Below the pieces are notes generated by a model. The model was not told the origin of the DNA and made no database searches. It was given only the letters and a program-made list of their open reading frames with translations. A DNA stretch of 64,000 nucleotides, from positions 21,058,845 through 21,122,844 of the forward strand of contig NC_049979.1 of assembly GCF_000003815.2 (NCBI RefSeq), given 5' to 3'. Each line of letters opens with the position of its first letter. Positions within the stretch are counted from its first letter, which is position 1. The stretch is from Branchiostoma floridae. Taxonomy: Eukaryota; Chordata; Leptocardii; Amphioxiformes; Branchiostomatidae. Shown here piece by piece: positions 38,401 to 64,000 of the stretch. Position numbers and translations under genes: made by a program.

Positions 38401-41400
38401 CTATAGATTGTACTTATTTAATTCTGTGAATAATTATTCGTTTCTTCCTCTAGCTTAATGACACAATATTTCCAACACTCTTTTACCCGGGACCTCCAAT
38501 TGCAAATGAAGTAAAACATTGTGTTATTTGCAATAACACACTTGTGGTTTGATGTACATAACACATATAACGAGGTGGATTCAAAAAGTAATACCATTGG
38601 GTTCATAGCAGGATCATTTTTCTTCGAATGAGTTGAAATTACCTTTGTGTCAAATTTAAACTTATTTGACGAAAAGATGAACCTGTTATAAACTTAACGG
38701 TTATAAACCTTTTTGACCCCCCCGTTTTACATGCCATGATTTCAAAGACCACAAAAAAGTCCAGACAAAGTGGGCGGTGATGTTTACTTACATAGATGGT
38801 GTCACATAATTAAGTCGTAATTGATTAGAAGTAAATATATTACAAAGTATTTTGTCAACCTGATACAGAGTTGTTTTCTTTTAGCTTGGCTGCTTGTAAG
38901 TCAAGGTCTAAAATGGAAGGTTGATATATCAGTGGTCAAACTAAACGTAACCAAGCTGAAAGACGCCCAAATCCCTTATATCCCACATCATTTCTCACGT
39001 CAGTGTTGTAACGTTATAGTGTAATTGCTTGCATAACCGGGCAATCGGTAAACGGTGTTAAGTGCCTTTCCTAAAGACCCAATGCTCAGGGGACCTGCTA
39101 GGAATTCGAACTTAGAACCTAAGTCAACTAGCTTATCCAGAAGGCCACCATCATGCCACCATGTCTATTTGTTGCTAACATCGCTATGGTTAACGTTTTA
39201 TACTATACGGTTTTTCTTTCGCCATAGTTATTTTAAAAAGGTACGGTGTATTTATTTGATAAATGTTTTAAGTAATGTTACGTTTGTTTTGTAATGTATG
39301 AAAAAGACTTCAAAACGCAATGCCGAGGTCGATATATACGTAGTAGTCTATTGTGGCACAAAATAACACACGTTAAAAGTATCTCGAGATGTTGTTAAAA
39401 GAACCAAAACTAAAAATTAGACGAATCAACCAAATGTGACCGCCCCATAACAGAGGAAAAGATCTCTCAAATGTGACAAACCAACAGAAACATTTTTTTT
39501 CATTCACAGATGCGAGGAAGAGAAGCCCTCCTGCTCACGGCGGCGGTCCTGACACTGCTGTTGCTCATCGGTCACGAAGTCGACGGTAGCGGTAGTCGCC
39601 GAAGACGTCGGCGCCGAAGCACCACCAGCCCGCCGCCCGTCGACTGCCGGTGGTCGTCCTGGTCTCTGTTCTCCTCCGACTGTGGGAACACCTGCGGGGG
39701 GACGAGAACCTACACCCGGTACCGGTGCAGGCCGGCTGCGAACGGCGGCGCTGATTGTGTTGGGGACACGCAGAAGACTGAACCATGCCCGGGCACGGCG
39801 TGCCAGAACGGGGGACAGTGGAACGGCGCCTCCTGTACCTGCCCGAGTGGCTTCTATGGGTCCTGTTGTCAAACAAGTATGGTTTCTCATATATTGCAGA
39901 GTTTAGTAGTTTGTAGTAGACCATACGAAAGCCTCAGTGTGCTTTTGTGTTGTCAGTAAAGCTTCTATTGAATAGTTTTACAGATCTACTGTGTTGCATA
40001 GATTCTGAAGTAGTTTGAACTCACAAGATAAGGTTCGACATCTTATTAGTCAGTTGCACGTCTGTTGAGGAATCCACATTGTGTAATGGATACTCGACTT
40101 AAAACGTTGTTGGTTCCGATGATACTTGACCTAGACTAATGCAAACACAAAGCTTTGTGAAAATCTCACGTAAAAAAGGCACAATTTCTAGAAGGGTTGA
40201 CCCGGTTTGCTTGATGCTGTAGCGAAGCCGCGATTGCGTGACCACTGGCTATTTGAAAAAAAAAAACGCACATCATGATTCACCTCAACTGCTTTACCTT
40301 TTACCTAACATTTTTCCCCGGCCAGCTCTGATGTGCCCACCTCTGGACGCCCCCTCCAACGGTCAGATCAGCTCTCCGGTCATGACGGGTGGCGACGTGG
40401 TGTACTTCTCCTGTGACCCCGGCTACACGTTGTTGGGTAGCAGCTCGGCGACGTGCGAGTCGTCAGGCAGCTGGTCCAACAACAGACCTATCTGTCAGAG
40501 TAGGTGTCTAGTATCTTGTTATTGATCGTGATGTCAATGCGTTTTGTTACTGATGCGTCGTTCTAATGCATTAATCTGCATCTAGAATACGAAACTGACG
40601 TCAGATTTGTGATGTGTTGTGTCGAAAAATCGATGATTGAGTTTCCGCGCAGCCACTTTGTCTCCCGGCATAAGAGAATCTTTGCCAATGTTGAAAATCG
40701 GCATCGCGAACCAGCTCTCCCTCAAAAAATAAAAGCCAGCACTGCTAGAAGTCTGGGAAGGAGACTAGAATAAGGCCATATTTAGTATTTTTGTGCCGGA
40801 ATTTCTATAACTCATCTACTAGTTGTTATAATATTAAGTAGCTAACGTGTAGGCATTATGACTAACCCTTGTCTCAACATACGATACTTCTTGAAACACA
40901 AACGACTGGGTTCAGTGACCAAAGACACACTAGATCATCCTTAATAAAATGTCTCATCATAATGTTATATTGTTGATTAAACATTTTGATACGAAGTTTG
41001 AGTTTTCTATCCATCTATGATGTCCATGTAGGAGGCTCCTGCCCTGCCCTACAGGTGGTGCCGCACGGCTCGATGTACGGGTCCATGTCCACAGGCTCCA
41101 CCATGACATTCTCCTGTTTACCCGGCTACACTCTGAGCGGTCCCTCCTCCATCACATGTACCCCACAGGGAGTGTGGAGTGCGCAACCTCCAACTTGTAC
41201 AGGTACGTCGAGCGCTAGCAAATACTCAGGCAGCAGCAAAGTAATCGAACAAAGCGGTCTTTTCATCTTCTGTTTTGTGATGCAATTGTAGCATACGGTC
41301 AAACCTTTTGTACAACTGACCGCCCCAACATAAGAACCACTTGGCAAATGTAACTGCTTTTTTGTGGTCACTTCGATAATTTCCTCCATTGACGTAAGCA

Positions 41401-44400
41401 TTAAGAATCCTGTCTATAGTGACTACCTGTCCATGTAGATCAGAGTTTATCGGTCCTCTAAGTGGTCTTCTTGATTTTTAAAGTAATTAAAGGTGATAGA
41501 TGTCCAATACGGTTTATCATTACCAACCAACGACTTCAATACTTCATCAAACTTGAAATCAGAAATCTAGGAAGATTTTCTTTATGAGCAGCGTCTTCTG
41601 ATTGAAAAATAGCTTTGAGAAAACACTTTATGATACGTAAAATTGTATTCAAAGTTTTCTGTCCCTCTGATTCGCCAATTCATCAATGCAGTACAGCAAT
41701 ATATTTTGTTCCAAATTTTATTTCACCAAAACAGCTGTTCAATGCCCGACGCTGTCACCTCCTTCCCACGGAACAATCAGTAGTGTCACAGCGCCATCTG
41801 CCGGGACCTGGAACTCACTGCAGTGTGATACCTCTTTGGTAAACCAAGGCCCGGTCCATACCGTGAACTGTGGAACAGACTCCACCAACTTCAACGGCCA
41901 AACCTTCACGTAAGACAAGATATATAGATACAATGCATTCTTGTTATCTAAGCTGTCTCTCTACTGAATGAAGAGTGAAAGAATGAAGAGGAAACCCACA
42001 GAATCTAAGCTATCTTTTTTACAACCTTCGGCAGGTTCGAATGACCAATCACGTGCACGTGACCTTAGAAACAAGTGACGTATTTGTAAAAGCACCAAGA
42101 GGTTCATGCTACCTGAAGTCATTGGTAGATAATGTAGATTATTTATCAAACAAAGATTTTTTTAAAGATTCACATTATTCTTAATCTCCCTAAAGGTATC
42201 TCTCCAATCATCTTGGAACATTGTTCTACTGTCAGACACAATTTTCCCCCCATTTCACAGAGTGAGTTGTCCTGTCGGGTGCTCTGGGTGCCGAAACTGT
42301 GTCTGGGGGACTGGTGTCTACACTGATGTGAGTACTGTACTCAATACTTAGAACTATTTATTCACAACTGGAAATTATTAGGTGACTGTGTAAATTACAC
42401 TGCAGCTCACCGTTTCCAATGGCTATAGCCTCCTTCGCAGAGCCGCGGCGTTTTAATCTATTTTTGTTGAGGCTGATTCATGGTTTTCAACATGGGCTAA
42501 GGTTCTCCATGCTGGGAAGGGGAGCTTTGATGCAAAAAAAAAAACTATCTTTCCCAGCATAGAGAACCTTAGCCCATGTTGAAAATCCTGAATCAGTGTG
42601 CCCCCAGAAAAAAAACGAAAACGCCACCGCTCCCGAAGTCTGCGAAGGAGGCTAGTTCAGGACTGAGACATTTCTTGGTGTCAACTGAGACTTACAATAC
42701 AGGCAACGCACACTTTGGAATCACTGAAAAGGATGCTCATCTTTGACAGGATTCGAGTATCTGCCATGCTGCTATCCATGACGGTAGGATCACGGATGCA
42801 GGTGGGCAGGTGACCGTGCACAGATGGCCCGGACAGAACTCTTACCATGGATCATGGAAGAACGGCATCCAAACGAATGAGTAAGCCATAGAGGGTTTTC
42901 AGTAACATTTGCCGAAATATTTTCCTTCCTGGATTTCAATATCTTGCCAACAATTTGTTAGTTGGAATATTCTGTGAAGCTAAACGTGTTGTCCATCCTT
43001 TTTTTCAGTTACGGACGATGGGGTAGATCCTTCGCCTTCACACCAGGTAGCTCAACAGTCTATACGTTGTTGAATGCTTGGAAATGAAAGCTTTAGTTAC
43101 ACGTTAGTCGCTGCTGAAAGAATCTTGGTCTTGTGTATGACTCTGAGTCTTTCTACGACGAGGACAATAATTATACCTTTTGCAATATGAGGGGCTCAAG
43201 TATCAAAATTGTCACCTCGATTTGCAAGACATGTTTCTATGGGTGCTTGGTGATGGAGGTAAGATACCTCTAAAGGTGGTATCTCACTACACTTGCGTCA
43301 CTGCTGGGTTCATTCACTGCGTCACTGTTTTGTTATTTTCTCGGATTTTTAAAATGATTTAGATATTGCGTAATACGTAAAAGTAGGACATAAAAGACGA
43401 CAAAATACACAAAAAGAAGAAAATTTGTTCTTTATCTCTGAAATTTGTCAAGTATCTTTCAAACCCCAGTGACGCAAGCGTGACGCAAAGTGCAGTGAGA
43501 TACAACTTTAAGTCTAAAAAAGCAACGCATAAAATAATCATATGATTGTATATCATATACCACCCTATATGACCCTTGCTAAAGCGCTTTTGTGTACTGT
43601 TTACTGTTTATTTTACCATAGTATTGGTTTAAGTATGATGAAATCTTATAAATCTAAACTTTACAGATATCAGTGTAGCCCCAAACCGTAATATTTGTTG
43701 ATGTTACAAAATGCAAAATGATGCAGCAATCCATTGTTCTTCTATAACGTTACTGATAGTTACCAGAGAGGAAAGGTCATCAAGTACTAGCTGCGCTTCA
43801 CCAGGCTACACCAGCTTCAACGGAATCTGCTACAAGGTCTATACCAGAAACAAGAGCTACAGTCGGGCCCGACAAGTTTGTGCCGCGACGGCGGTCTGNN
43901 NNNNNNNNNNNNNNNNNNNNNNNNNNNNNNNNNNNNNNNNNNNNNNNNNNNNNNNNNNNNNNNNNNNNNNNNNNNNNNNNNNNNNNNNNNNNNNNNNNTC
44001 GATTCTCAGTACGACGGGCTTCAGCGCTGGGGCAAGAAGAGCGAGAATCCATCACTCAGGGGCAAGATCTGGATCAGGATCAGGATCAGGGGGACAACTC
44101 CCATTCTAATAATAAAGACTGTGCTCTACTGAGGCGCAGTGGACCAAAGTGGGAGGAGCACGATTGTGGTCATGGCCACAATTTCGTCTGTCAATCAAAT
44201 CATGGTATATGTCTCCTCCAAATTCAAAGTTTCCAACATAATTAAATCCCAAAATTTGATCAAAACTAAAAACGATTATAAATATATGTAGGATGGACTA
44301 ATAAAACACTTTGACGTCTATGAAAATTGTAACTTATATGTCATAATTCACATCATAGTTTTCAAAAAGTTTTAATGTCTAAAAATACCTACTCTTGCAT

Positions 44401-47400
44401 GGACAATCAGTATTGGTGGTGTCTACTGGTGATATTTACTTAATCAATAAGCAGAGTATCTATTCATCCACCCATAAGTCGGTAGATTCTGAGTTATTCT
44501 CAAACTTGTGTCTTGTTTTCAGTGATTCACTCGCAGGTACAGACCCAGTGTACCGTACTGGCGAATCCGGATCCCATAGCTCAGGGAAGCGTGACAGGAC
44601 CGACCCACCTGTACGGCACGACCATACACTTTGCCTGCTCGCCAGGGTATACCATGGTCGGTACACCCGACAGGATGTGTCAAACCAACGGTCAATGGAG
44701 TGGCTCACAACCTACCTGTCATGGTAAATATCAAACATTTAATGGAACAATCATTATCATGAGAGATATAGTATAGAACACAGAATACACTTACATGATT
44801 AACGTATGTAATGTGTAATTGATATATAGCACTTTAACGAAATATGGCAGGCTAACATTTGAGCACTCTAAACTCTAAGTGACTGGCAAATGTGTGGGTG
44901 AACTTGAATTTGGAAGCCAGATAAACCCAGTCAGGGACTTACAATCATATTGTTTCCTCAGCAAACCAAGTTCCACAGTGTACAGCCCTTAGTGCACCTC
45001 ACCACGGAACGATCAGTGGGAGCAACAATCTGGGAGACACTGTGACGTTCTCCTGCGACCTTGGTTACGAGCTAACAGGTTCTGTCACAAGGACCTGTCA
45101 GTCAACATTGGACTGGTCTGGGACACAGCCGACTTGCACCAGTAGGTCACCATACTTGCTCTTTTAGGTTACATTGGCCCGGGTCCAAATTTGTTCCTCA
45201 GACATGCAGGAAATTAATGTTGCTGTTGATGAAGTCTAGAACCCAAGAGAGAGACATATGTTTATACATTTAGTCAAGTCATGTTTATTGCACAACGATT
45301 GCATCAGGTACAATGCATGGCAAGTAACATGTATTATTAACAACTACAAACCATCTACAACAGTACACAACAGTATACTAATCTAACATAACAGAGAATA
45401 TGGTGACATAGTGTATTTCACATTGTTAGAACACTACTTCTCTTTTGCATAGCATTATATAGATTGGCCTATGTGGACAGATATGGTGTCGGGACATGAT
45501 AGGAGTACATTGCAATGAATATTTCCCTGCTTGATTTAGGTAATGTTGTTCTGTTGTTACATATGCCTGGTCAACAACTTTTTCCTTTCTTCATTATAAT
45601 AAGGGCATATCATCAGGAAATGATATTCATGATCTTCAATAGTGACAGTCTTTGCAGATTACACATTCTCTTTTCAGCTGGTACATTTTTGTGATGAGCC
45701 TTTTCAATTTCTGAACAATATGTACAATAGTCATAGTCCTGTAATATGTGTCAGAAATTTACAGGAAATATTTCATGGAAGAGTTATGAGGAAATCAATG
45801 ATTCTTGTTTTCTTGTTCAACAATGCTAGTTCATTGTTTTTTTGTTTTAATCTTGATTAGGTTTAGACATTATCATGCTTTTTTAAATGTAAAGATTGGT
45901 GAAAAAATTTCATTTACGGTGATCCTAAAATGTTCTGATGAACAGAGGTCCAGTGTCCCGTGGTGACCGCTCCCCTCCATGGACAGATGTCTGGTAACCG
46001 CTTTGTATATGGCAAACATCTGCAGTTCTCCTGCGATGCTGGTTATGAACTGGTAGGGGGCAGCGCTATTATAACTTGTCAAGCTGACGGAACCTGGGAT
46101 GGAGCAGTGCCAATATGCAACAGTGAGTTCATGTTAACCTGATTTCAAAGCTTTAATGACAAAATTTTAAAGACAGGATGCTTCTTTATTCTTTACAAAC
46201 CAATTCTTTACAGCTTGAATATCTTAGTGTTGTGTAGTGGCATAATCTGTGTGGTTTTGATTTTTGGCAACACCCCATGGACAGAGCCATATTAAACACT
46301 TTTAAAGGAAACAAAACTATATTGTTATGAATGAAGAGAATGAGACATAAAAAACAGCAACCCCATGTTTGTTGAAAGCCATACTTTAAGCACATTAAAG
46401 AACTCACCACATTTCTTGATTTCATTTCATTTCATTTATTTATTTAGCCAGGGACGACATATCGCCACTACGGCGGTTTTCAATGTGCCCTGCGTTACAT
46501 CATAAAACAAAGGTTCAAAACACTTAAATACATCAAACATAAAGTATAATACAACAAACCAAAGAAAATACATACAGCCAATACAAGCAAACTCATGATG
46601 ATAAGTAAAGTAAATAAGGTAGAATGGAATTTGCATATCAATGATTTATAAACAAAACAAAATAAACTGTTAAGTGGTAAGGCATTCCTTTTTATACATG
46701 TGTTTAAAAGACTCAACAGAGGCTGCTGCTTTCACTCTAGCTGGAAGTGAGTTCCATAATACCGCACCACTACATGAAAGGGATTTCTTTTTGTACTGAA
46801 GATGAGCTTTGGGTAGTTGTAGTCCACCCTGTGCTCTGAGTCGTGTGTTGTGGGAATGAACCCCCCTTAGCTCTGTGAATAGGCCTGAAATGTGGGGAGG
46901 GGACATTCCGTTCAATGCCTTGAAAACAAGTACCGCTTTATTCCTCTTGAGGATGTCCACCACGGGGGTCCATCCAAGTGTATGCATAATGGTTTCACTG
47001 GGTGTGTACAAGTCGCAGCCCAGGATAACCCTACCTGCCCTGTTTTGGAGTTTCTGTAGTTTGTCCATGTAAACCTTGCTACCTTGGTCCCAGACAGTAC
47101 TACAGTACTGTAAGTGTGGAAGGAAAAGTGATGAATACATTGTCAGTAAGGCCTGTTTGTTGATGAAAGGCTTGAGACACTTCATGATACCGATAACTTG
47201 GGAGAGTTTCTTTGTGACATGACTGATGTGATCATTCCACTGTAGAGCACTGTCAAGTACTACACCTAAGTACTTAAATGTGTGTACCTGATCAAGGTTA
47301 AACCCTGCTAATGTGAGATGCAAATTACTGTATGCGGCTTTTGACCTCTGTGTTCCGACAAGCATAGCTTTGCATTTTGTTGGATTTAGGGAGAGTTTAT

Positions 47401-56400: not shown

Positions 56401-59400
56401 TTGACATGTCATACTAATGAGTTTAGAAAAAGCTAGGCCTGTAAAATGACTGAGGTTCAGACTGGTCCAGACTGGGCCACTGGTATCACAGAACAATACA
56501 GTACAGAAACAGTAACTATTTTGCATACATTATTAAAGTCTTGCTGAGTGATTGCCACACCTCTCAGTAAAAAATACACAATTTTATCTGCTCATCTGAT
56601 ATTGTCATTACCAGTAACAGTTGGTTTTCTTTTTATCATATTGTATATTGTATTGGATTTGACACTGTGAGTATCATCTTCAGTAACTATACTTCATTTT
56701 GCATCAGGAATCCAGTGCCCTGCTGTCCAGGCTCCTCTGAATGGTGATGTGACTGGGGGGAACTTTTTTGGTAGCACGGCAACCTACACCTGTGATGTTG
56801 GGTACCTCCTGACTGGCCACAGTACCAGCACATGCCTCAGCACAGGCACCTGGAGCAGTCAGGACCCTCAGTGCACATGTAAGTCCATATCTTATTTCAT
56901 TCAGTTTTACCACATTTGTGGAAGGTGTGACATAACAGGTGACTATCACCTTTGCAAGAAGTCAACCCGAAGACCAGACTGTAAGGTTTGATCCACTCAC
57001 ACCGGGAAGGTCCCCTACTCTTTTCGATAAGTGCAGTGGGTTCTTTAACATGCTCGAGGTGTGGCTCTCCCCAAAGCTAGGTACTCATTTTCACCTGAGT
57101 GAAGTGAGGAAAGGGCACAAGATCCGTGACATGGCAGGTTTCGAATTTGTCACCTCTTGAGACTGAGCCCATAGCGCTGCTGATTACGCCACATGATCTC
57201 ACGTTTGATACATATTGATTTACATAAAAAATGATCAATCCCAGAGGCATTTAATTTTTTGACCAAAATAACCATTTACAGTTATTTGTTGAATTTCCAA
57301 AGTTTGTCACTGCTAGTCAATTTTCATTGATTCATATTCAAGAGAAAAGGCTTCATCCCTTATGTGTTGCCAAAAACGTTTTCCAGTATAGTTTTTTTAG
57401 TCACTATTACTTACTAAGGATGTTTTCCATGGTTGTCAAGTAGAACATGAGAAATGTGTATCAGAAATATATGATCCTATTTGCTTGTTGATATTGTCAT
57501 TCATATTGTTGCTTTTCATGGTTTGTCTAATATCAATGAAGCCACTTCAAAAAGTTGCAATTGAATACCAATGGAAATGTTATATTTCCAAATGCGTCAC
57601 CAACAAAAACATTTTCTCACTACAGTGAAGACCTGTCAACCACTGGCGTTTCCAAACCACGGCACAGTGACTGGTGGAAACAATTACGGAAACGTCGCCA
57701 CCTACACCTGCGATGTCGGCTATGACCTAATAGGAAACCCCACCCAGACGTGTCAAGACAACCAGCAATGGACTGGTTCCCCACCAACTTGTCAAAGTAT
57801 GCATGGTTTAATAGATTCTAAATTTGAAATATCAACCCCCACCAAACTCCTTCTGCTTTGTCACCACAAAAAATCCCATTTGCCCAGTCATTCCTCTTCG
57901 TCCTTATTGGAAATCTGTTTGTCCCCACCCTTCTGCTTTGTCCCCAATGGCCGCCATTCCATGGAACTGCTTATAGTTGACAGGAAAATTATCAAGAAAG
58001 AAACAATAATGATGCAAACCTTAGCTATACTAACAAACTCTGTCCTTGGTACTGAACAATGTTTTAACATATGAAATGTTTTATCTGAAGACAATTCAAT
58101 CGCTACAGCTTCGGACAAAATCTCTGTTGTTCATCCAGTGGTGGAGATTGAATTGTCTTTGAATATTGTTTACTTGTATGTCTAACCAGAAATGTGTGCG
58201 ATGCTTTACTTAGTCACATTTAATGTGTCATGATATTATTTCCTTTCAGCAAAGGAAGCCTGTATAACACATGTTATGAGCATGAAGAGCATAATTGTTT
58301 GGGGTGTTGTTAGTTGTGATATGTGGTTATACATGATCTAATTTTTAAAATATATCTTCTGCCAACTTTGTTAAGAGGTCCAGTGTGCCTCTCTGAGTGC
58401 GCCAACAAATGCAGGCATGACGGGAACGGGAAACGAGTATGGGGACACCGTGCATTTCAGCTGTTTGCCAGGATACACTCAGACAGCAGGAGACACTGAC
58501 CGAACTTGTCAAGCAGATGGCATGTGGAGTGGTCTTCAGCCTTCTTGTACAGGTATGAATACCACAGGAATACATAGCTAAATAGTATCTGGCACAGCAG
58601 CATTTTAGTGACATCCAACGAAGCTCTGCTATTGGTATGCATGATGTAATGTAAATTCTATGTAATTCTGCCAGTAGGTATCCTAAGACTGCAAAAAATG
58701 AAAAATTATTGAGGCCTATTCAAAAATATTTGGAACACCGATATCTGAAGGATGCATACTTTGGGTATTACTAATGCTGCATGAAATAAGATTTTTTTAG
58801 GTGGTGTAAGGGTACCCTGTGGAATTATGCAAGCTTATATTACAAGGTCTTTGCTCATCATTTTTAAGACATTCTCAGTGACTCTCATCATGGACTTTGA
58901 AGTCTGGAAAGCTCAATGATTACAAACAGAAAAGACTTCATGTTGTGCAGTAATTATATGGAACTTAAATGCTCTGACAAAATTGCATGTAGCTTGTAGA
59001 TGCCCTAAAAAATTGCCTCAGGCTGTAACTTGTAGATGCCCTGGCAGAATTGTATGTAACTTGTAGATGCCCTGGAAAAACTGTAACTTGTAGATGCCCT
59101 GGAAAAATTGAATGGAGGGTTTCTCCTTATGATATTGTTTTTAACAGCTTTTATTCCCACTTGCAGTGAATGAATGTCCCCAGCTTGATACACCTACTAA
59201 TGGTCAGTCTTATGGCCAAAATGCCTACAATGGTGTGATGATCTTCTTTTGTAATGATGGATATGAACTGGTTGGTGGTGACGCTGTGCGACAGTGCAAT
59301 CCAGTTGACGGCACGTGGACTGGGATTCAGCCATCTTGTCAAAGTAATCATGTATTATATCTTTAAGTTACTGAATTATCATAGAAATATTGATAGAAAG

Positions 59401-62400
59401 CTCCCATGATTTATGAAAGCTGACACTGTTTACCTGCATGTATGCAGGTATGGTTTTGATGCTGGTGGGAACTTTTCGGTAGCCGGGGATGTAGGGCGCT
59501 GTATCTCGTGAACGGATGGTGCGAGCACGACGATTTTTGGTACGTGGGTTGGGGGTGGTAGCCTAACACTCAGGTTTGATTTTGGGCCTCCTGGCGTTTG
59601 AACTTGACATTGCAGGTGGCATTTTTGGTGTTTTTGGGGCACTTTTGGCGCTGTGTGTCCGGAACGATACGCGCGATTGCGACGATTTTTGGTGCATGGG
59701 TGGGGGGTTGTTGCCTGTTGCCTAGGATTGACTTTGGGCCTTGTCGCGTTTGAACTTGACCCGGCAGGTCGAATTTTGTGTCCGGGAGGGGTGTTTCCGG
59801 AGTTATATCTTCTGAACGGCTGGTGCTGGCGCGATGATATTTGGCACATGTGTCGGCGGTGGCTGAATAATGCTCAATTTTGATTTTGGCGCCCTTGGTG
59901 CTTGAACTTGACATTTTAGGTTACCTTTTGTGCGGGCACGGGGCGTGCGCTGTATCTCCGGAACGCAAGGTACCATTGTGTTGCTATTTGGTACGTGAGT
60001 TGTTTGTGGTGTCCTGGTGGTCAGGTTTGATTTTGGGCCTCCTAGTGCTTGAACTTGATACTGTATACTATTAGGTTGACCCTGTTTTTGTGTGGTTGGG
60101 GCATCCTCCCAATATCTGCTTGGTTTTAAAAACAGATTATGGTTGGGTGTAGAACCATCATCTGGCCTGGGCCACCTTCAATGTATCAGGTTACTTAGTG
60201 GCACTGACAGTTTGCCAGATGACGGGAGTGTACAAGATTATATATCTGTTGGTCAGGTATAATTGGAGTTTGCTTATTACTCTTTGTGGTGTTTCTAGAG
60301 CTGTATAGTACTGAGTTTTAAGTTTCGGTACAAGTTCCTTTACCCTGTTGGCAATCATGGTTGAACTTGAACTTAAACAGAAGAAGATGCAATTTTCTAA
60401 TATGGAGGAGAACTGTATAGAGTGTGGGCATAAGAGAAAGGTATGTGTATGATTTGTCCTGTGTTTCTTTTTGTTTCTTTGGTAATGCCATTTCCATACT
60501 GTATACAGGTAATTTGTTGTTTTGGGCTAGTCATATTCGCTTGGTTTTTGGGCCTGCTTAATCTATGGTACAGGCAGGGTTAAGTGGTGGAGGCTTAGCT
60601 TTGTTCTGTTTTAAATTCAGTATCGTTTGTTGCATTTTGTCGCGGCAAATATATGATGAAATTCCCCTTCTAAGCAACTGCTCATTGGTTTGCGGGGATG
60701 TTTGCTGGGTGTTTGCTCTGACTACAACAGCTTCTGAACTTTTCAAAGCTTCCATTGCCAGCAGCTTGCCATCTATAAATGGGGTTGACAAGGACATTTT
60801 TCATAGTAAATTATGCTGTTAAATTTGGCTTAGATACTACAGGAGATTTAGGTTTGGGTTGGATGGATTGAATGATAATATCATACTCTCCCTGGGGACT
60901 AACTGTTGCTGCTGCATGGGGGCTACCACTATTCATATTGTCTAATGTCTATGGAACTACAGATAAAAGTATCATTGGTCAAATTATGCAAGTAACATTC
61001 CGATNNNNNNNNNNNNNNNNNNNNNNNNNNNNNNNNNNNNNNNNNNNNNNNNNNNNNNNNNNNNNNNNNNNNNNNNNNNNNNNNNNNNNNNNNNNNNNNN
61101 NNNNAGTGAAAAACCCCCCCCAGAAATAAAATCTTTAAATGGAAATTTCATTGGGAGGAACCCCAAACCCAAAGGAGACTTTAGCAGCTGCATTAGGTCA
61201 GTACATTGAAATAGGAAGATATTAGTATATCATGTGACAGAGTAACTACATGTGCATGGGCCATCTGAGACAAAAAAAGGTAGCGTCTCAACAACTTCAA
61301 AGTACTGTGGTTGGTTACATACTTAAGAAATCCAAAATAAGTAATGTTCATCCATGTCCAAACTTACAAATTCAGAAAATGGAATTTCAGAGTCAGACTT
61401 TTGCATGGTGCACAACCAACATGGTAAAAAGCTCATTTTTCCAACCACGTACCACAGACAAAAAGGCAAAAATACACAATAGGTCTACAGAAACCCAATA
61501 CATTTCATGCAGGCCTGAGGTCTACGAACTCTTGTTTATACTGTATGTAAGGTCTTAAATTGTACAACTTACTTAACTTTCTCCTTACGAGAAAAAATGT
61601 GTGTCTGTTTTAAAAGAAATGAGGGTGTTGCTTTAGTTTAAACTTCAGTCCAATGTTTTGACTCAACATGTTATACACCTTACATAGATATCTTAATAGA
61701 CATTTTCACTATGCCATTTGTCATTATTTCTTTCTCTTCTATCAGATGACTTTCACCTGACATTATCTTTTTTACGATATCTTAAACAGGAAAAGAGTGC
61801 CCCCCACTTTCAACACCCAGTAACGGTTTCATGTCTGGCACAAACTTCTATGGCGACCAGGTGACCTTCACTTGCCATTCTGGGTACGAGATCTCCGGAA
61901 GTGCGGTCTTAACCTGTCAGATGAACCAACAGTGGAACGGAACCCAACCAACCTGTGAACGTGAGCGTTCCACTTACCTCGAATTTACCTTGAATTCCAC
62001 AGGTTTGATTAGAATGATTATGTCACCTGTAACTGGTGTTTTTAAAGATATGTTAGAAGGTAACCTTATGTTATCATGACGATGGTAAAAGTAATAATAG
62101 CATTTTTCAGGCTGTAGGGACAGTAGGTTATTATCTACTGTGTTCAGGGCACCTTTTATTTCAGGTATCAAAAATCAGGTATCAATTTCTACACCTTGTT
62201 GGAGTAAGAAAAGCCAAGTAACTATTGCAAGGACAGAACATCTAACGTTAGCCAGGAACACAAGGAATTGATTCAATAGCTTAGCCACTCTGTCATTTGA
62301 TGCCAGTTTGATTCTTTCACTAGGAAAAGAATCTGATAGACATTCACAACATTCACAAAGTGTCAATAGACACAAAAAATCAGCAGGAAACTTGTGAAAA

Positions 62401-64000
62401 ATATCACATCTACTACAATATCTAGTTTTCAATATTCTCACAGTGACTACATTTTCTTCTTAGCTAATTTTTTTTAGTTAATTATTTATATAAATGTAGT
62501 TGAATTACCATCTAGCCTTATGTTACCCGATTTTGCTTTTTTTAAATGTCAAAAGTTGTGCTTCAATCAATGGTTAGCTTTTCTTCACTCCCTTACACTA
62601 TACAGGGATCCATTGTCCACCATTGAGTCCCATAGCCAATGGACAGATGAGTGGAGGTCATCTGTTTGGTGACCAGGTCATGTTTGTGTGCAACTCTGGC
62701 TATGACCTCAGCGGAAGTCCTTCTCGGAAATGTCAGGCAGATGGAACATGGTCCGGAGTACAGCCAGCTTGTGACCGTAAGTTTGAAGTGTAGAAATCCA
62801 TAGATTATTTCAGGAATTGGTGTTGACATGCATTTTTCAAAATCAGCATCAACATAAAAAAAAGATAAACTGTAGAAGCTCATATAATGTTATATAGTAG
62901 AGTGAAATCATTCCTCAGCTAATTGACATCTATTGTACTGCAGTCATCCCTAATTAAGGCATCTGGAGACGCATTGTTCAAGTTTTTGAAGCTTTATTCA
63001 GCCTGCCAAGGCTCATATTACATGTATGTTACTTAGCCATGATGATTACATGTTCGATTTCTCCGATAAGATCCAAACACTTCATTTACATAAAGGTAAC
63101 TCTTTTAGAACATTCAATTAAAGATCTTTAAATGCTCATAGTAGTGTTATTTGCAAATATGCATTTCCATTGCATTTATACTACAACATGAATATTCCAG
63201 CCACACACTTGAAACACGATTAAACCTCCCTCTTCTCCCCTACTGCAAAGAATGGCTTATTGCAAAGAATGGCTTATTTGCAGTAACTGATTTGATATTC
63301 CCGTTGGTTCTATAGGCGTAGTATGCCCAGACACGTCAGCCCCTGCCCACAGCTCAGTGACTGGAGGGCTGTATCTCGGTGACACGGCAACATACTCCTG
63401 TGACCCTGGGTATGAACTGCATGGAAGTGCCACCCAGATATGTCAGGCCGACCAAACATGGAGTGGGACACAGCCAACATGTCACAGTAAATATATGGAT
63501 TTATTTCTTATGACATTATTATTGTAAGATTGTTGTACAATTGCAGACTGAAAGTATTCTTGGAAAGTTGAGCAAAATTCAGCTGTGTTGAGATGAAAAT
63601 TGCTGGCTTGTTGTTGGCTGCCTCACAACCTGCTGGAAAATTCTACAGCATCAATATTGTACAACTACCTAAGACAAATGTTACAAAGCACTATCTGAAA
63701 AGTTCACCTGATTTTTATCTGTACCTTCACAGAAGGAAAACATGATGATTTTGTTCTGTTCCTTGTTCTTCTTCTTCTCCAAAAAAAGGTCAATGACCTT
63801 CACCAGACTGCTGCCACCATGGTAACCGTTGAAGTAGCAGACACCAGTGGCAGTCAATAACACTATGTAGCAATTGGCTTGACACTCAGTAGACAAACAT
63901 AGATATGAATGTGTTTGAGTAAGAATGAACAGGGTATTAGTCTGTTAGACTAAACCATTTGATGATAAACGTTATATATTTGCTTGCAAATGTATCTTTA
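35425..64000 (+). CDS. Factor C-like secreted multidomain protein: TSP1-EGF-CCP-LCCL-CTLD-CCP(n), 3' end outside window
   Basis: The coding part starts at ATG 39510. Order: signal peptide (1-26), Arg7 tract (30-36), TSP1 (46-98), short EGF (93-120), CCP1, CCP2, half-CCP plus LCCL, C-type lectin, then CCP3 to CCP24. Thirty exons are visible; every CCP exon is symmetrical, phase 1 to phase 1. EGF - CCPs - LCCL - C-type lectin - CCPs is the order of the non-catalytic chain of horseshoe-crab Factor C, an LPS-activated coagulation protease; that protein has three CCPs before LCCL, two after the lectin, and then a trypsin-like domain. Here the tail is expanded to at least 22 CCPs and the start has TSP1. 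A secreted recognition or complement-like role is inferred. No stop codon, membrane segment or protease is reached before the window ends; the last visible exon ends at 63486. Alternative: a SVEP1-like or lectin-sushi scaffold lacking a protease. Confidence 0.8.
35940..36198. repeat. MITE family M3, copy 1
   Basis: Ends TAAAGGTGGTATCTCACTGC and GCAGTGAGATACCACCTTTA are exact inverted complements over 20 bases. The interior shares TTGCGTAATACGTA and TTCTTTATCTCT with copy 2 at 43270-43510. Confidence 0.85.
37424..37453. repeat. 30-bp perfect palindrome with upstream half-sites
   Basis: The half-site GTAACAAACGTTACC is followed directly by its exact reverse complement, giving a 30-base perfect palindrome. 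The same 15-mer half-site also occurs at 37081-37095 and 37263-37277, in the same direction, all inside intron 1. Confidence 0.85.
39057..39150. repeat. tRNA-like SINE fragment
   Basis: GTTAAGTGCCTTTCCTAAAG, then GGAATTCGAACTTAGAACCT and GGCCACCATCATG recall a widespread marine-invertebrate repeat (a tRNA-related, TTCGAA-containing element). Diverged. Related fragments lie at 48000-48215 and 57000-57200. Confidence 0.4.
39510..39876 (+). CDS. Start exon: signal peptide, Arg tract, TSP1, short EGF
   Basis: The acceptor TTTTTTTTCATTCACAG ends one base before the ATG, so translation starts at the very first base of the exon. MRGREALLLTAAVLTLLLLI is a strong signal peptide with likely cleavage near Gly26. 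Seven consecutive Arg follow at 30-36, a possible furin-type site or polyanion-binding tract. CRWSSWSLFSSDCGNTCGG is a TSP1 start (WSxWS, CxxTC), ending PCPGTAC; CQNGGQWNGASCTCPSGFYG is a four-Cys EGF of the NGG-x-W type. The exon ends phase 1 at CAA ACA A with donor GTATGG. Factor C has a Cys-rich region rather than a clear TSP1 before its EGF. Confidence 0.85.
40326..40499 (+). CDS. CCP/sushi module 1
   Basis: TLMCPPLDAPSNGQISSPVM opens the module; VVYFSCDPGYTLLGSSSATC and W-SNNRPICQ complete the four-Cys pattern (C-P-L, F-C-PGY, C, W-x-P-x-C). Phase 1 to 1. It is the first of two complete CCPs between EGF and LCCL. Confidence 0.85.
41032..41202 (+). CDS. CCP/sushi module 2
   Basis: GSCPALQVVPHGSMYGSMST, then MTFSCLPGYTLSGPSSITC and GVWSAQPPTC give a complete CCP. 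Acceptor TGATGTCCATGTAG, donor GTACGT, phase 1 to 1. Confidence 0.85.
41735..43046 (+). CDS. Half-CCP plus LCCL domain, four exons
   Basis: Exons 41735-41909, 42261-42327, 42750-42880 and 43009-43046 are joined in phases 1, 2, 0, 2, 1. The first begins like a CCP (AVQCPTLSPPSHGTISS) but lacks the CxPGY and WxxPxC parts; it turns into the LCCL start (LQCDTSLVNQGP, NGQTFTVSCP). The next exons read CPVGCSGCRNCVWGTGVYTD, then DSSICHAAIHDGRITDAGGQ, VTVHRWPGQNSYHGSWKNGI, and YGRWGRSFAFTP. VWGTxxYTxDSSxCxAAIH and Y-GS-x-NGI are LCCL signatures; the four conserved Cys are present. LCCL is named for Limulus factor C, Coch-5b2 and Lgl1, and may bind LPS in factor C. Confidence 0.9.
42426..42654. repeat. 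Hairpin MITE with TA target duplication (LCCL intron)
   Basis: TA-flanked ends GCCTCCTTCGCAGA and TCTGCGAAGGAGGC enclose a second, longer inverted repeat: TTTTCAACATGGGCTAAGGT and ACCTTAGCCCATGTTGAAAA around 42487-42585. The TA duplication suggests a Tc1/mariner-type or other TA-inserting element. Confidence 0.8.
43270..43510. repeat. MITE family M3, copy 2
   Basis: Begins TAAAGGTGGTATCTCACT and ends AGTGCAGTGAGATACAACTTTA-like sequence; same family as 35940-36198 with several small differences. It lies in the intron between LCCL and lectin exons. Confidence 0.85.
43769..44204 (+). CDS. C-type lectin domain exon(s), interrupted by an assembly gap
   Basis: Before the gap: CASPGYTSFNGICYKVYTRN, then KSYSRARQVCAATAV, the start of a C-type lectin domain (C, GYTSFNGxCYK, S-ARxxC). 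After the gap: NNKDCALLRRSGPKW, then EEHDCGHGHNFVCQSN, the final half (xDC, W-x-D-C, FVCQ). The middle, including any sugar- or calcium-binding EPN/QPD and WND motifs, is missing in the 100-N gap or distorted: just after it lies a GGATCA hexamer run (44071-44088) giving DQDQDQ. Whether one or two exons span the gap is unknown. The exon ends phase 1 at CAT G with GTATAT. The 5' border (43769) is chosen to keep phase with the LCCL exon. Confidence 0.75.
43899..43998. other. Assembly gap (100 N) inside the lectin domain
   Basis: Exactly 100 N, a conventional placeholder, so its true size is unknown. It removes the central part of the C-type lectin domain. Confidence 0.98.
44523..44723 (+). CDS. 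CCP/sushi module 3 (first after lectin)
   Basis: VIHSQVQTQCTVLANPDPIA, then TTIHFACSPGYTMVGTPDRM and GQWSGSQPTCHG form a CCP. At 201 bp it is the longest CCP exon, with a longer first loop than the repeated cassettes, so it is probably the ancestral post-lectin module. Phase 1 to 1. Confidence 0.85.
44962..48519 (+). CDS. CCP cassette 1 (modules 4-7, types D-A-B-C)
   Basis: Exons 44962-45141 (D), 45946-46122 (A), 47739-47909 (B) and 48349-48519 (C). Type D reads GDTVTFSCDLGYELTGSVTR with DWSGTQPTC; type A LQFSCDAGYELVGGSAIITC; type B GYVLTGDATSTCLSTGVWSN with QPPQC; type C GYTLSGAPTQTCQSSQQWSG with SPPTC. The cassette is about 0.6-1 kb longer than the others because two LINE fragments sit in its introns. 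All exons are phase 1 to 1. Module 7 is the most diverged type C. Confidence 0.85.
45270..45740 (-). mobile_element. LINE 3' fragment (minus strand)
   Basis: On the minus strand NVPAEKRMCNLC and, after a frameshift, TVTIEDHEYHFLMICPYYNE recall the C-terminal zinc-knuckle-like region (C-x2-C...EDEYHFL-x-CP) of non-LTR retrotransposon ORF2. The end near 45270 reads GCAATAAACATGACTTGAC. It is 5'-truncated and decayed, in the intron between CCP modules 4 and 5. Confidence 0.5.
46418..47580 (-). mobile_element. 5'-truncated non-LTR retrotransposon (jockey/CR1/L2-like)
   Basis: The minus-strand frame 47506-46670 encodes 278 residues beginning at the YADD catalytic box (MYADDTIIYFAHRSLETIKQ), then LSLNPTKCKAMLVG, the FKYLGVVLD motif, LQYCSTVWDQG and the C-terminal AVLWNSLPARVKAA region. 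The frame extends upstream to LINDLPNCIQSC and breaks off near 47580. Only the RT thumb and C-terminal end of ORF2 remain. The 3' end carries an ATGAA-type tail (TTCATTTCATTTCATTTATT on the plus strand). The intact reading frame suggests a fairly young insertion in the intron between modules 5 and 6. Confidence 0.85.
48000..48215. repeat. Diverged SINE-like repeat
   Basis: Contains TGCTGAGTGTTAAGCAAAGA, then TACCATTTTCAAAGTCTTGA, CATGGAACTGAATCTC and CACTCTACCCCCTAGGC. This is the layout of a tRNA-related dispersed repeat common in marine invertebrates. In the intron between modules 6 and 7. Confidence 0.45.
48961..51473 (+). CDS. CCP cassette 2 (modules 8-11, types D-A-B-C)
   Basis: Exons 48961-49134 (D), 49946-50116 (A), 50672-50839 (B) and 51303-51473 (C). 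Diagnostic stretches: D GDTVTFSCDPGFEIHGSTDR; A GYQLVGSTTLTCQADQTWSG; B GYLLIGPATTTCQSIGTWSA; C GDVATYACDPGYEMVGSPTQ. Module 10 (type B) has an additional Cys, TASCGCDPGY where its relatives have TYTCDxGY, giving five Cys in the module, and is the shortest CCP (56 codons). All exons are phase 1 to 1. Confidence 0.87.
49561..49618. repeat. 17-bp perfect inverted repeat, motif recurs in other introns
   Basis: TTCAGCACCAAGGACAG (49561-49577) and its complement CTGTCCTTGGTGCTGAA (49602-49618) with a 24-base loop. The right arm recurs at 54305-54322 (CTGTCCTTGGTGCTGAAC) and, with one change, near 58038 (CTGTCCTTGGTACTGAAC). Confidence 0.8.
51665..51840. repeat. Palindromic TTATGCATAATTATGCATAA array
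   Basis: Several copies of TTATGCATAATTATGCATAA, separated by spacers such as GTTTCCAATGG and GGTTCCAAGAA. Each unit is itself palindromic and contains ATGCAT elements like those in POU-factor sites. The array runs into an assembly gap. Confidence 0.8.
51846..51945. other. Assembly gap (100 N) in the MITE array
   Basis: Placeholder of exactly 100 N where the palindromic array could not be assembled. It lies in an intron, so it probably does not remove an exon. Confidence 0.98.
52189..54742 (+). CDS. CCP cassette 3 (modules 12-15, types D-A-B-C)
   Basis: Exons 52189-52362 (D), 52809-52979 (A), 53722-53892 (B) and 54572-54742 (C). Diagnostic stretches: D GDTVTFSCDTGYEITSGSSS; A GDQLQFSCSPGHQLIGSSTL; B GYLLFGDSTTDCLSTGTWSS; C GDVAHYACDPGYDLVGTPSR. 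Module 12 ends TGTQPTC and module 14 QPPQC, the same endings as the matching types elsewhere. All exons are phase 1 to 1. Confidence 0.87.
53057..53275. repeat. MITE family M1, copy 2
   Basis: Starts TAATGCTAGATCATCTTTAT and ends GATAAAGGTGAACTAGCGTTA-like sequence. The interior shares ACATCAAGTCAATGGACGG-type sequence with the copy at 21130-21348. Intron between modules 13 and 14. Confidence 0.8.
55159..57796 (+). CDS. CCP cassette 4 (modules 16-19, types D-A-B-C)
   Basis: Exons 55159-55329 (D), 55921-56091 (A), 56708-56878 (B) and 57626-57796 (C), each exactly 171 bp. Diagnostic stretches: D GDTVTFACDPGYEITGTSNR; A GDQLQFHCSTGYQLVGSSTL; B GYLLTGHSTSTCLSTGTWSS; C GNVATYTCDVGYDLIGNPTQ. Modules 14 and 18 (B), and 11, 15 and 19 (C), are the closest pairs by eye, so cassettes 2-4 look younger than cassette 1. 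Confidence 0.87.
55414..55840. mobile_element. hAT-type MITE with 8-bp target duplication
   Basis: Ends TAGGGGTGAGTACCGGTACA and TGTACGGGTACCCACCCCTTAA-type complement; flanked by GTGTAGAG at 55406-55413 and again at 55841-55848. An 8-bp duplication with (T)AGGGGTG ends is the hAT pattern. The interior is rich in GGACC/GGTCC repeats and has no transposase. Intron between modules 16 and 17. Confidence 0.8.
57000..57200. repeat. Diverged SINE-like repeat
   Basis: Contains GTGGGTTCTTTAACATGCTC, GAGGTGTGGCTCTCC, CAGGTTTCGAATTTGTCACC and GATTACGCCACATGA, the conserved landmarks of the dispersed TTCGAA-containing repeat also seen near 48.1 and 39.1 kb. Intron between modules 18 and 19. Confidence 0.45.
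58376..63486 (+). CDS. CCP modules 20-24, cassette register breaks down
   Basis: Exons 58376-58552 (20), 59167-59343 (21), 61790-61960 (22), 62606-62776 (23) and 63316-63486 (24). Module 20 is type D by position and by its GDTVHFSCLPGY core. Module 21 (DGYELVGGDAVRQC, with NP-VDGTW insertion) is A-like but diverged. Module 22 is D-like (GDQVTFTCHSGYEISGS), 23 A-like (ANGQMSGG), 24 most like C or D (GDTATYSCDPGYELHGSATQ). B and C types are missing after module 21, where a 2.4-kb intron contains a 100-N gap, so exons may have been lost or unassembled there. Module 24 ends TGT CAC A with GTAAAT, phase 1, so more coding exons follow outside the window. Confidence 0.83.
58990..59110. repeat. Short tandem repeat, AACTTGTAGATGCCCT units
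   Basis: Four copies of a unit containing (A)GCTTGTAGATGCCCT or AACTTGTAGATGCCCTGG spaced 27-45 bases apart, in the intron just before module 21. Confidence 0.8.
59495..60075. repeat. About 150-bp tandem array, four diverged units
   Basis: Each unit carries GCGCTGTATCTC(C)GGAACG, then GACGATTTTTGGTACGTGGG, then TTTGATTTTGGGCCTCCT and GCTTGAACTTGACA. Units start near 59499, 59650, 59800 and 59948. It is GC-richer than the rest of the introns, which creates the long spurious open frames on both strands. Intron between modules 21 and 22. Confidence 0.8.
60076..61789 (+). other. Remainder of module 21-22 intron with unassigned open patches
   Basis: Open stretches with exon-like character are GVEPSSGLGHLQCIRLLSGT up to a GTATAA at about 60264, and MVELELKQKKMQFSNMEENC then IECGHKRK before GTATGT at 60440; past the gap MEISLGGTPNPKETLAAALG reads to a stop near 61225. 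They do not share the symmetrical phase-1 CCP pattern and none resembles a sushi domain. They may be remains of one mobile element. Not recognised. Confidence 0.3.
61005..61104. other. Assembly gap (100 N)
   Basis: Placeholder of exactly 100 N in the longest intron of the CCP tail; the true length is unknown and exons could be missing here. Confidence 0.98.
63487..64000 (+). other. Intron after CCP module 24, window end
   Basis: Begins with the GTAAAT donor after module 24. AT-rich, no acceptor followed by a CCP-like frame before the window ends. Confidence 0.6.

What the first reader, a model, noticed from the sequence alone, without database searches (positions are those of the whole stretch)
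39510..63486. Factor C-like domain order in a deuterostome-type genome
Seen: signal peptide, TSP1, EGF, two complete CCPs, LCCL, C-type lectin, then at least 22 CCPs, on consecutive exons of one strand with continuous phase. Known: in horseshoe-crab coagulation Factor C the order is Cys-rich, EGF, three CCPs, LCCL, C-type lectin, two CCPs, trypsin-like protease, and the protein is triggered by LPS. Inference: this gene is a Factor C relative, or a convergent build from the same modules, with a hugely enlarged CCP tail. If a protease follows, it would be an LPS-sensing protease candidate outside arthropods; if not, a soluble pattern-recognition scaffold derived from one.
Basis: partly seen in the sequence, partly recalled or inferred. 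Interest (0 to 1): 0.92.

Follow-up and report, generated by a model that had tools for sequence, protein, structure and literature searches.

The report
Giant lectin-sushi scaffold, not Factor C
A lancelet-like animal carries three side-by-side copies of a huge secreted protein that looks like the front half of the horseshoe-crab endotoxin sensor Factor C, but no enzyme follows, and a stronger candidate for a Factor C relative sits elsewhere in the same genome.

Summary
The domain order is real. In this copy the lectin exon holds an assembly gap and a frame change; it is open in two tandem paralogues. Extending 200 kb right, no protease follows: 16 more CCPs, 3 atypical CCPs, an unknown module, an ephrin-receptor-like module, 3 EGFs, a second lectin, and a stop shared by three copies. 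dN/dS of 0.35 between copies A and C argues for function. It is probably not the Factor C orthologue: the Cys-rich LPS domain and protease are missing, and LCCL and lectin resemble other genes of this genome more. A better Factor C homologue lies at C5:11.71 Mb: Cys-rich with R-W-K, EGF, CCPs, protease 50% identical to recalled Factor C, no LCCL or lectin found. Best reading: a lineage-specific, non-enzymatic, multivalent recognition or adhesion scaffold. Descent of its head from Factor C is unlikely but not excluded (LCCL AU test p 0.36).

The parts
39510..39876 (+). exon 1: signal peptide, Arg-rich stretch, TSP1-like module, truncated EGF-like segment; ATG at 39510, phase-1 donor
   Evidence: Pfam TSP_1 18.9 bits and TSP1_spondin 21.6 bits, both below cut-off
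40326..40499 (+). CCP 1, exon phase 1-1
   Evidence: Sushi 48.8 bits
41032..41202 (+). CCP 2, exon phase 1-1
   Evidence: Sushi 49.6 bits
   Evidence: no Pfam hit alone; the PDB match of paralogue C to cochlin LCCL starts in this exon
42261..42327 (+). LCCL exon 1 (CPVGC...VWGTGVYTD), phase 2-0
42750..42880 (+). LCCL exon 2 (DSSICHAAIHDG...NGIQTN), phase 0-2
43767..44204 (+). C-type lectin-like exon; holds a 100-N gap (43899-43998) and a change of reading frame downstream of it; open in paralogues B and C. 3' end set at the weak donor-like site at 44204 by comparison with C
44523..63486 (+). 22 CCP exons, all phase 1-1: 44523-44723, 44962-45141, 45946-46122, 47739-47909, 48349-48519, 48961-49134, 49946-50116, 50672-50839, 51303-51473, 52189-52362, 52809-52979, 53722-53892, 54572-54742, 55159-55329, 55921-56091, 56708-56878, 57626-57796, 58376-58552, 59167-59343, 61790-61960, 62606-62776, 63316-63486
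   Evidence: Pfam Sushi on all 22

Best explanation
The gene encodes a secreted-type, non-enzymatic mosaic protein of roughly 3,400 residues: a TSP1-like, truncated-EGF, 2.5-CCP, LCCL, C-type lectin-like head; a stalk of 41 CCPs; then an unknown module, an ephrin-receptor-like module, three EGFs and a C-terminal C-type lectin. It is one of three tandem copies. Shown: order, phase, copies, selection between two copies, no protease motif in the bases read. Inferred: it works as a long multivalent bridge. The CCP stalk holds a head (LCCL plus a lectin-like domain without the EPN/QPD sugar motif) apart from a tail lectin that keeps EPN...WDD, so one molecule could hold two ligands, such as a microbe or matrix glycan and another surface, as a humoral recognition, agglutinating or adhesion scaffold. 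The Factor C-like order of its head most likely arose by exon shuffling of phase-compatible modules from the animal's own LCCL, lectin and CCP pools.
For: Exon chain and shared stop. Tandem copies in the same order. 39 of 39 CCP exons compared collinear reciprocal-best A v C; dN/dS 0.347 on the 33 of 39 pairs of equal length, 1,859 codons. Pfam: Sushi, LCCL, Lectin_C in the head of C; Sushi, Ephrin_rec_like, EGF_CA, Lectin_C in the tail of A. No protease motif in 264 kb, Ns apart; the trypsin matches listed on C1 lie at 8.8 and 29.25 Mb (150 of 368 candidates scored, list cut). LCCL 70% identical to a C7 LCCL, 39-42% to recalled Factor C. Lectin 46-52% identical to other CTLDs of the genome in the 13 best non-family rows. 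Collinear partners of Factor C CCPs 1, 2 and 4 rank 10th, 29th and 21st of 47. EPN in the tail lectin of A, B and C.
Against: No transcript. Copy A's lectin exon is broken as assembled, and the junction of its third EGF with the second lectin gave a stop with the donor chosen. The recalled Factor C aligns collinearly with the head of copy C (171 bits, 25% identity), which descent would also explain. The AU test on LCCL does not reject a Factor C + window clade (p 0.36). A review passage says that the lectin-like domain and CCP4 of Factor C also contribute to LPS binding (PMC10672452), so loss of the Cys-rich part need not mean loss of LPS binding. No binding or expression data. Sugar-motif rules are recalled.
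Confidence: 0.6

Rival explanations
1. The head is a true descendant of Factor C: an ancestral protease with EGF-CCP-LCCL-lectin duplicated, and this copy lost the Cys-rich domain and protease and grew a CCP tail.
For: Order EGF-like, CCP, CCP, half-CCP, LCCL, lectin, CCP; one collinear 171-bit alignment to recalled Factor C. LCCL AU test does not reject the clade (p 0.36).
Against: LCCL and lectin are closer to other genes of this genome. Recalled Factor C LCCL has 14 genome matches, none on C1 (62 of 62 candidates scored); its lectin has 27, none on C1 (150 of 244 scored). CCP ranks show no positional match. The C5 homologue has no LCCL or lectin found.
Confidence: 0.15
2. It is an extracellular-matrix or developmental adhesion protein of the SVEP1/polydom type, not an immune recognition molecule.
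For: CCP stalk joined to ephrin-receptor-like and calcium-binding EGF modules, a combination recalled from SVEP1; no protease found; purifying selection.
Against: No VWA or pentraxin in the two stretches scanned; LCCL and two C-type lectins are not SVEP1 modules (recalled). Tandem copies fit recognition genes, though not only these.
Confidence: 0.25
3. Two neighbouring genes were read as one: a TSP1-LCCL-lectin gene and a separate CCP gene.
For: No transcript evidence; long introns.
Against: Phase fits across the join in copy C, and the copies keep head and tail in the same order.
Confidence: 0.06
4. Copy A is a decaying pseudogene, and only other copies work.
For: Gap and frame change in the lectin exon of A.
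Against: The other exons modelled in A are open, and dN/dS against C is 0.35, though that is an average over both copies; the break lies beside a 100-N assembly gap.
Confidence: 0.2

Closest known systems
Coagulation Factor C of horseshoe crabs (heavy chain)
   Same: Order EGF-like, CCP, CCP, CCP-like, LCCL, C-type lectin, CCP; collinear 25% identity of copy C to the recalled sequence.
   Different: No Cys-rich domain, no basic-Trp-basic tripeptide found, no protease found; third CCP only half; 41 post-lectin CCPs instead of 2; EGFs and a second lectin at the end.
Factor C-like protease gene on C5 of the same genome (L033+L034)
   Same: EGF and CCP modules.
   Different: That gene has the Cys-rich exon with RWK, six CCPs, a further CCP like Factor C's fifth, and protease exons with the triad; no LCCL or lectin found.
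SVEP1/polydom (recalled)
   Same: Many CCPs with ephrin-receptor-like and EGF modules.
   Different: No VWA or pentraxin in the stretches scanned; has LCCL and two C-type lectins.
Cochlin (LCCL in PDB 1jbi)
   Same: LCCL; best PDB match of the half-CCP/LCCL/lectin stretch of copy C (51.8 bits).
   Different: Cochlin is LCCL plus VWA domains (recalled); no VWA in the stretches scanned here.
Other LCCL-lectin genes: SUEL-LCCL-lectin locus on C3 (L035), LCCL loci with lectins on C2 (L029-L032), predicted DEC-205-FUSE of Fugu (PMC514892, passages)
   Same: LCCL and C-type lectin in one locus or predicted gene; the C3 LCCL is 61% identical to that of copy C.
   Different: Other partner domains; no long CCP stalk seen in the stretches read.

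Membership tests
Factor C | N-terminal Cys-rich domain with Arg-Trp-Arg LPS tripeptide | tested here: not met
   Exon 1 holds a TSP1-like module instead; no basic-Trp-basic tripeptide in the head of C or the rough model of A. Role of the tripeptide in T. tridentatus: passages of PMC10672452.
Factor C | EGF-like domain before the CCPs | tested here: inconclusive
   Truncated segment aligns to the recalled Factor C EGF but passes no Pfam cut-off; the EGF of recalled Factor C does not pass either.
Factor C | Three CCPs before LCCL | tested here: not met
   Two complete CCPs plus one half-CCP.
Factor C | LCCL directly followed by C-type lectin | tested here: met
   (scored in copy C).
Factor C | C-terminal trypsin-like protease with His-Asp-Ser | tested here: not met
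   No His or Ser motif in 264 kb, 23,650 Ns apart; stop after lectin 2 shared by A, B, C.
Factor C | Domains closest to Factor C domains (orthology) | tested here: inconclusive
   LCCL and lectin closer to genes of this genome, CCP ranks not positional; AU test on LCCL does not reject.
Factor C | LPS-triggered zymogen activation | not testable with these tools
   Needs protein and assay; no protease domain found.
SVEP1/polydom | VWA and pentraxin domains with many CCPs | tested here: not met
   None in the 649-aa head and 873-aa tail scanned; definition recalled.
Cochlin/vitrin | LCCL followed by VWA domains | tested here: not met
   LCCL is followed by a lectin and CCPs; definition recalled.
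DCBLD | CUB, LCCL and discoidin domains | tested here: not met
   No CUB or discoidin in the head or tail scanned; definition from its full name in a passage of PMC3927609.

The most novel reading that the evidence does not exclude
Split sensor: an early bilaterian Factor C with LCCL and lectin was divided in this lineage into a protease gene (C5: Cys-rich, EGF, CCPs, protease) and a giant recognition scaffold (C1: EGF, CCPs, LCCL, lectin) that presents microbes to it, so that a Factor C pathway survives in a chordate as two proteins.
Probability: 0.08. Interest if true: 0.85.

Novelty: new variant of a known kind. Interest (0 to 1): 0.45.

Why it matters
It shows how a diagnostic-looking domain order can mislead: modules in Factor C order occur in a gene in which no enzyme was found, while the stronger Factor C homologue in the same genome seems to lack the LCCL and lectin that give the order its look. 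If C5 is an orthologue, a protease with a basic-Trp-basic site in its Cys-rich domain predates the split of arthropods and chordates, and LCCL-lectin was gained in one line or lost in the other. The window gene is a large, tandemly copied two-lectin scaffold under purifying selection, open to direct ligand tests.

Tried and rejected
Protease hidden to the right: the motif scan of window + 200 kb found none; only His and Ser motifs were scanned, and 23,650 bases are N.

A 'SAAHC' match in the C2 LCCL loci looked like a protease; read in context it is the start of a C-type lectin. Rejected.

A stretch at about 87.75 kb after lectin 2 looked like a further exon; it holds stops in copies B and C and follows the shared stop. 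Rejected.

LCCL tree: 66 columns, long branches meet (Factor C with cochlin), no starred branch, AU test inconclusive. Rows: 12 sources searched by pattern; 8 gave a second LCCL exon, 1 of these (L007) was dropped for want of its first exon; of the 7 left, L005 and L008 are overlapping loci and show the same C7 exon, so 6 different genome LCCLs (A, B, C, C3, C7, C10) plus recalled Factor C and cochlin. 46 LCCL matches exist in the genome, so most were not in the tree.

A search for other copies of the unknown module (U1-U4) in the genome did not complete. PDB gave no match at E <= 1. No structure prediction was run.

Literature: the ten searches showed, in their listings, no paper on this gene; ('clotting factor C-like' + 'amphioxus') returned 0 papers. 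Listings are cut at 20 or fewer rows and subscription journals are mostly not held. Of five papers I saw passages only (PMC10672452, PMC10090249, PMC514892, PMC3927609, PMC9290674); none was read whole.

Full report
WHERE IT LIES. The window is G000:C1:21058845-21122844 of a 513.4-Mb animal genome in 431 contigs. I fetched the next 200 kb and number it on from the window ('ext').

WHAT IS THERE. Exons were modelled from open frames, a rough splice-site score and comparison of three tandem copies. Copy A, the window gene, starts at 39510. Its exon phases fit from exon 1 up to the lectin, and from the first post-lectin CCP on: TSP1-like/EGF, CCP, CCP, half-CCP + LCCL start, LCCL, LCCL, lectin, CCPs. 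Across the lectin the phase is taken from copy C, whose spliced head reads through without a stop. In the window 24 of 24 CCP exons pass Pfam's Sushi cut-off. TSP1 stays below cut-off. LCCL and lectin were scored on copy C: 74.6 and 55.7 bits. In copy A the lectin exon has a 100-N gap and a frame change.

WHAT FOLLOWS. Right of the window copy A has 16 more standard CCPs (66469-76043), three atypical CCPs (76468-78901), four exons of an unknown module (79347-81577), an Ephrin_rec_like module (82031-82192), EGF exons at 83100, 84655 and 85226, and a second C-type lectin (85760-86020, 86614-86725) ending in YHICQFTF-stop. Of the 16 + 3 CCPs, the last 3 + 3 were given to Pfam and all six count as Sushi; the other 13 were called by pattern only. 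Two places in this chain are not settled: the 5' edge of the exon at 66469 lies in Ns, and the junction of the third EGF with the second lectin gave a stop with the donor chosen. The terminal stop is the same in A, B and C. That is 43 CCPs: 2 before and 41 after the first lectin. The rough model of A has 3,243 residues; adding the codons split by introns and the lectin part lost to the gap gives about 3,400 (my estimate). The first extension segment begins with 2,463 Ns; copy C has no extra CCP between the two flanking exons. No serine-protease motif occurs in the bases read of 264 kb, and in the listed trypsin matches of this genome (150 of 368 candidates scored, list cut) none lies near the gene.

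COPIES AND SELECTION. A (39.5-86.7 kb ext), B (about 94.9-138 kb) and C (145.7-198.6 kb) keep the same module order. Standard CCP exons found: A 40 (one false match removed, one missed by the pattern added), C 40 (one false match removed), B 37 (Ns in B at 107.9, 110.4 and 124.5 kb). One exon of the unknown module looks damaged in B, so I do not call B intact. A and C: 39 of 39 CCP exons compared are reciprocal-best and collinear, 87.3% amino-acid identity over 1,859 codons of the 33 equal-length pairs, dN/dS 0.347. This is purifying selection on average; it does not prove that each copy is active. Within A, best matches among CCPs 9-19 mostly fall at steps of four (9-13-17, 10-14-18, 11-15-19, 12-16), a trace of duplicated four-CCP cassettes.

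IS IT FACTOR C? Its length, 1019, and its Pfam domains (CCP 199-254, LCCL 330-421, lectin 454-565, trypsin 763-1015) agree with values in passages of PMC10090249, but it remains a recalled sequence. It aligns with the head of copy C as one collinear stretch of 25% identity (171 bits, composition statistics off). Tests that separate order from descent go mostly the other way. LCCL of copy C: 70% identical to one C7 LCCL, 61% to a C3 one, 55% to a C10 one, 44% cochlin, 39% Factor C (A and B 42%). Recalled Factor C LCCL has 14 genome matches, none on C1 (all 62 candidates scored). Lectin: the copy C lectin has 46-52% identity in its 13 best rows outside copies B and C (150 of 797 scored); the recalled Factor C lectin has 27 matches, none on C1 (150 of 244 scored). 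CCPs: collinear partners of Factor C CCP 1, 2, 4 and 5 rank 10th, 29th, 21st and 19th of 47. Against this, the AU test on LCCL (p 0.36, 66 columns, long branches) does not reject a Factor C + window clade. I therefore call descent unlikely, not excluded.

THE BETTER FACTOR C HOMOLOGUE. The recalled Factor C protease searched on the genome pointed to C5:11713477-11715312, with a last exon 60% identical. The fetched 20 kb holds, on one strand: a Cys-rich exon 45% identical to Factor C's with RWK at the place of the LPS tripeptide, an EGF segment (38% over 29 columns), six CCPs that pass Pfam, a further CCP, probably split by an intron, that matches Factor C's fifth one (score 137 against 88 for the next best), and protease exons with AAHC, DNDVALL and GDSGGP. 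Joined by hand, the protease is 50% identical to recalled Factor C over 269 columns (289 bits by BLAST) and scores 190 bits as Trypsin. The best trypsin elsewhere was 40% identical over the whole domain (169 bits; another program, so only the identities compare). Neither LCCL nor lectin was found there with either query, and no LCCL match is on C5. The locus ends at the edge of the fetched stretch and has no cDNA, so an exon could have been missed. Passages of PMC10672452 say that the N-terminal part of Factor C binds LPS and that mutation of RWR abolishes this in T. tridentatus, while CCPs 1 and 3 do it in another species and the lectin-like domain and CCP4 contribute. So the best candidate for an LPS-type protease in this chordate is C5; its activation is untested.

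HOW IT PROBABLY WORKS. Shown: a secreted-type protein with a head, a very long CCP stalk and a tail lectin. Inferred: the tail lectin keeps EPN...WDD in A, B and C, the recalled signature of mannose-type calcium-dependent binding; the head lectin lacks EPN/QPD and may bind protein or nothing. Passages of a review (PMC9290674) say that cochlin's LCCL is released on bacterial infection and activates macrophages, which makes an immune role reasonable. The LCCL-lectin pair is not special to Factor C: it also occurs in a SUEL-LCCL-lectin locus on C3, in loci on C2 with LCCL and lectins, and in a predicted Fugu gene (PMC514892, passages).

LIMITS. No transcripts. The Factor C comparison rests on a recalled sequence. 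Introns were not scanned with Pfam.

Noticed in passing
G000:C5:11706001-11716000 (L034): Probable Factor C orthologue of this chordate: Cys-rich exon with RWK, EGF segment, seven CCPs, protease exons with the triad; LCCL and lectin not found.
   Followed up: partly
46670-47506 (-): Reverse-transcriptase fragment in an intron between two CCP exons (Pfam RVT_1 30.3 bits, just over cut-off 29.6).
   Followed up: no
21941-25360 (-): Open reading frame of 1,139 codons with charged and Gln/His/Pro-rich stretches and no Pfam match at E <= 1; looks like an exon of a neighbouring gene.
   Followed up: no
ext 79347-81577 (right of the window, in L010): Unknown module of four exons between the CCPs and the ephrin-receptor-like module, conserved in copy C and partly in B; no Pfam match at E <= 0.1 and no PDB match.
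   Followed up: partly
copy A, CCPs 9-19: CCPs resemble each other mostly at steps of four, a trace of duplicated four-CCP cassettes.
   Followed up: partly
L035 (C3:8826001-8834000): SUEL lectin, LCCL and C-type lectin exons in one locus, LCCL 61% identical to that of copy C.
   Followed up: partly
L029-L032 (C2:32.00-32.02 and 32.14-32.16 Mb): Two copies of an LCCL locus with lectin exons and, read by eye only, CUB-like and discoidin-like exons; resembles the predicted Fugu DEC-205-FUSE.
   Followed up: partly
whole genome: The copy C lectin has 797 first-look candidates (150 scored), so this genome seems to have a very large C-type lectin family.
   Followed up: no
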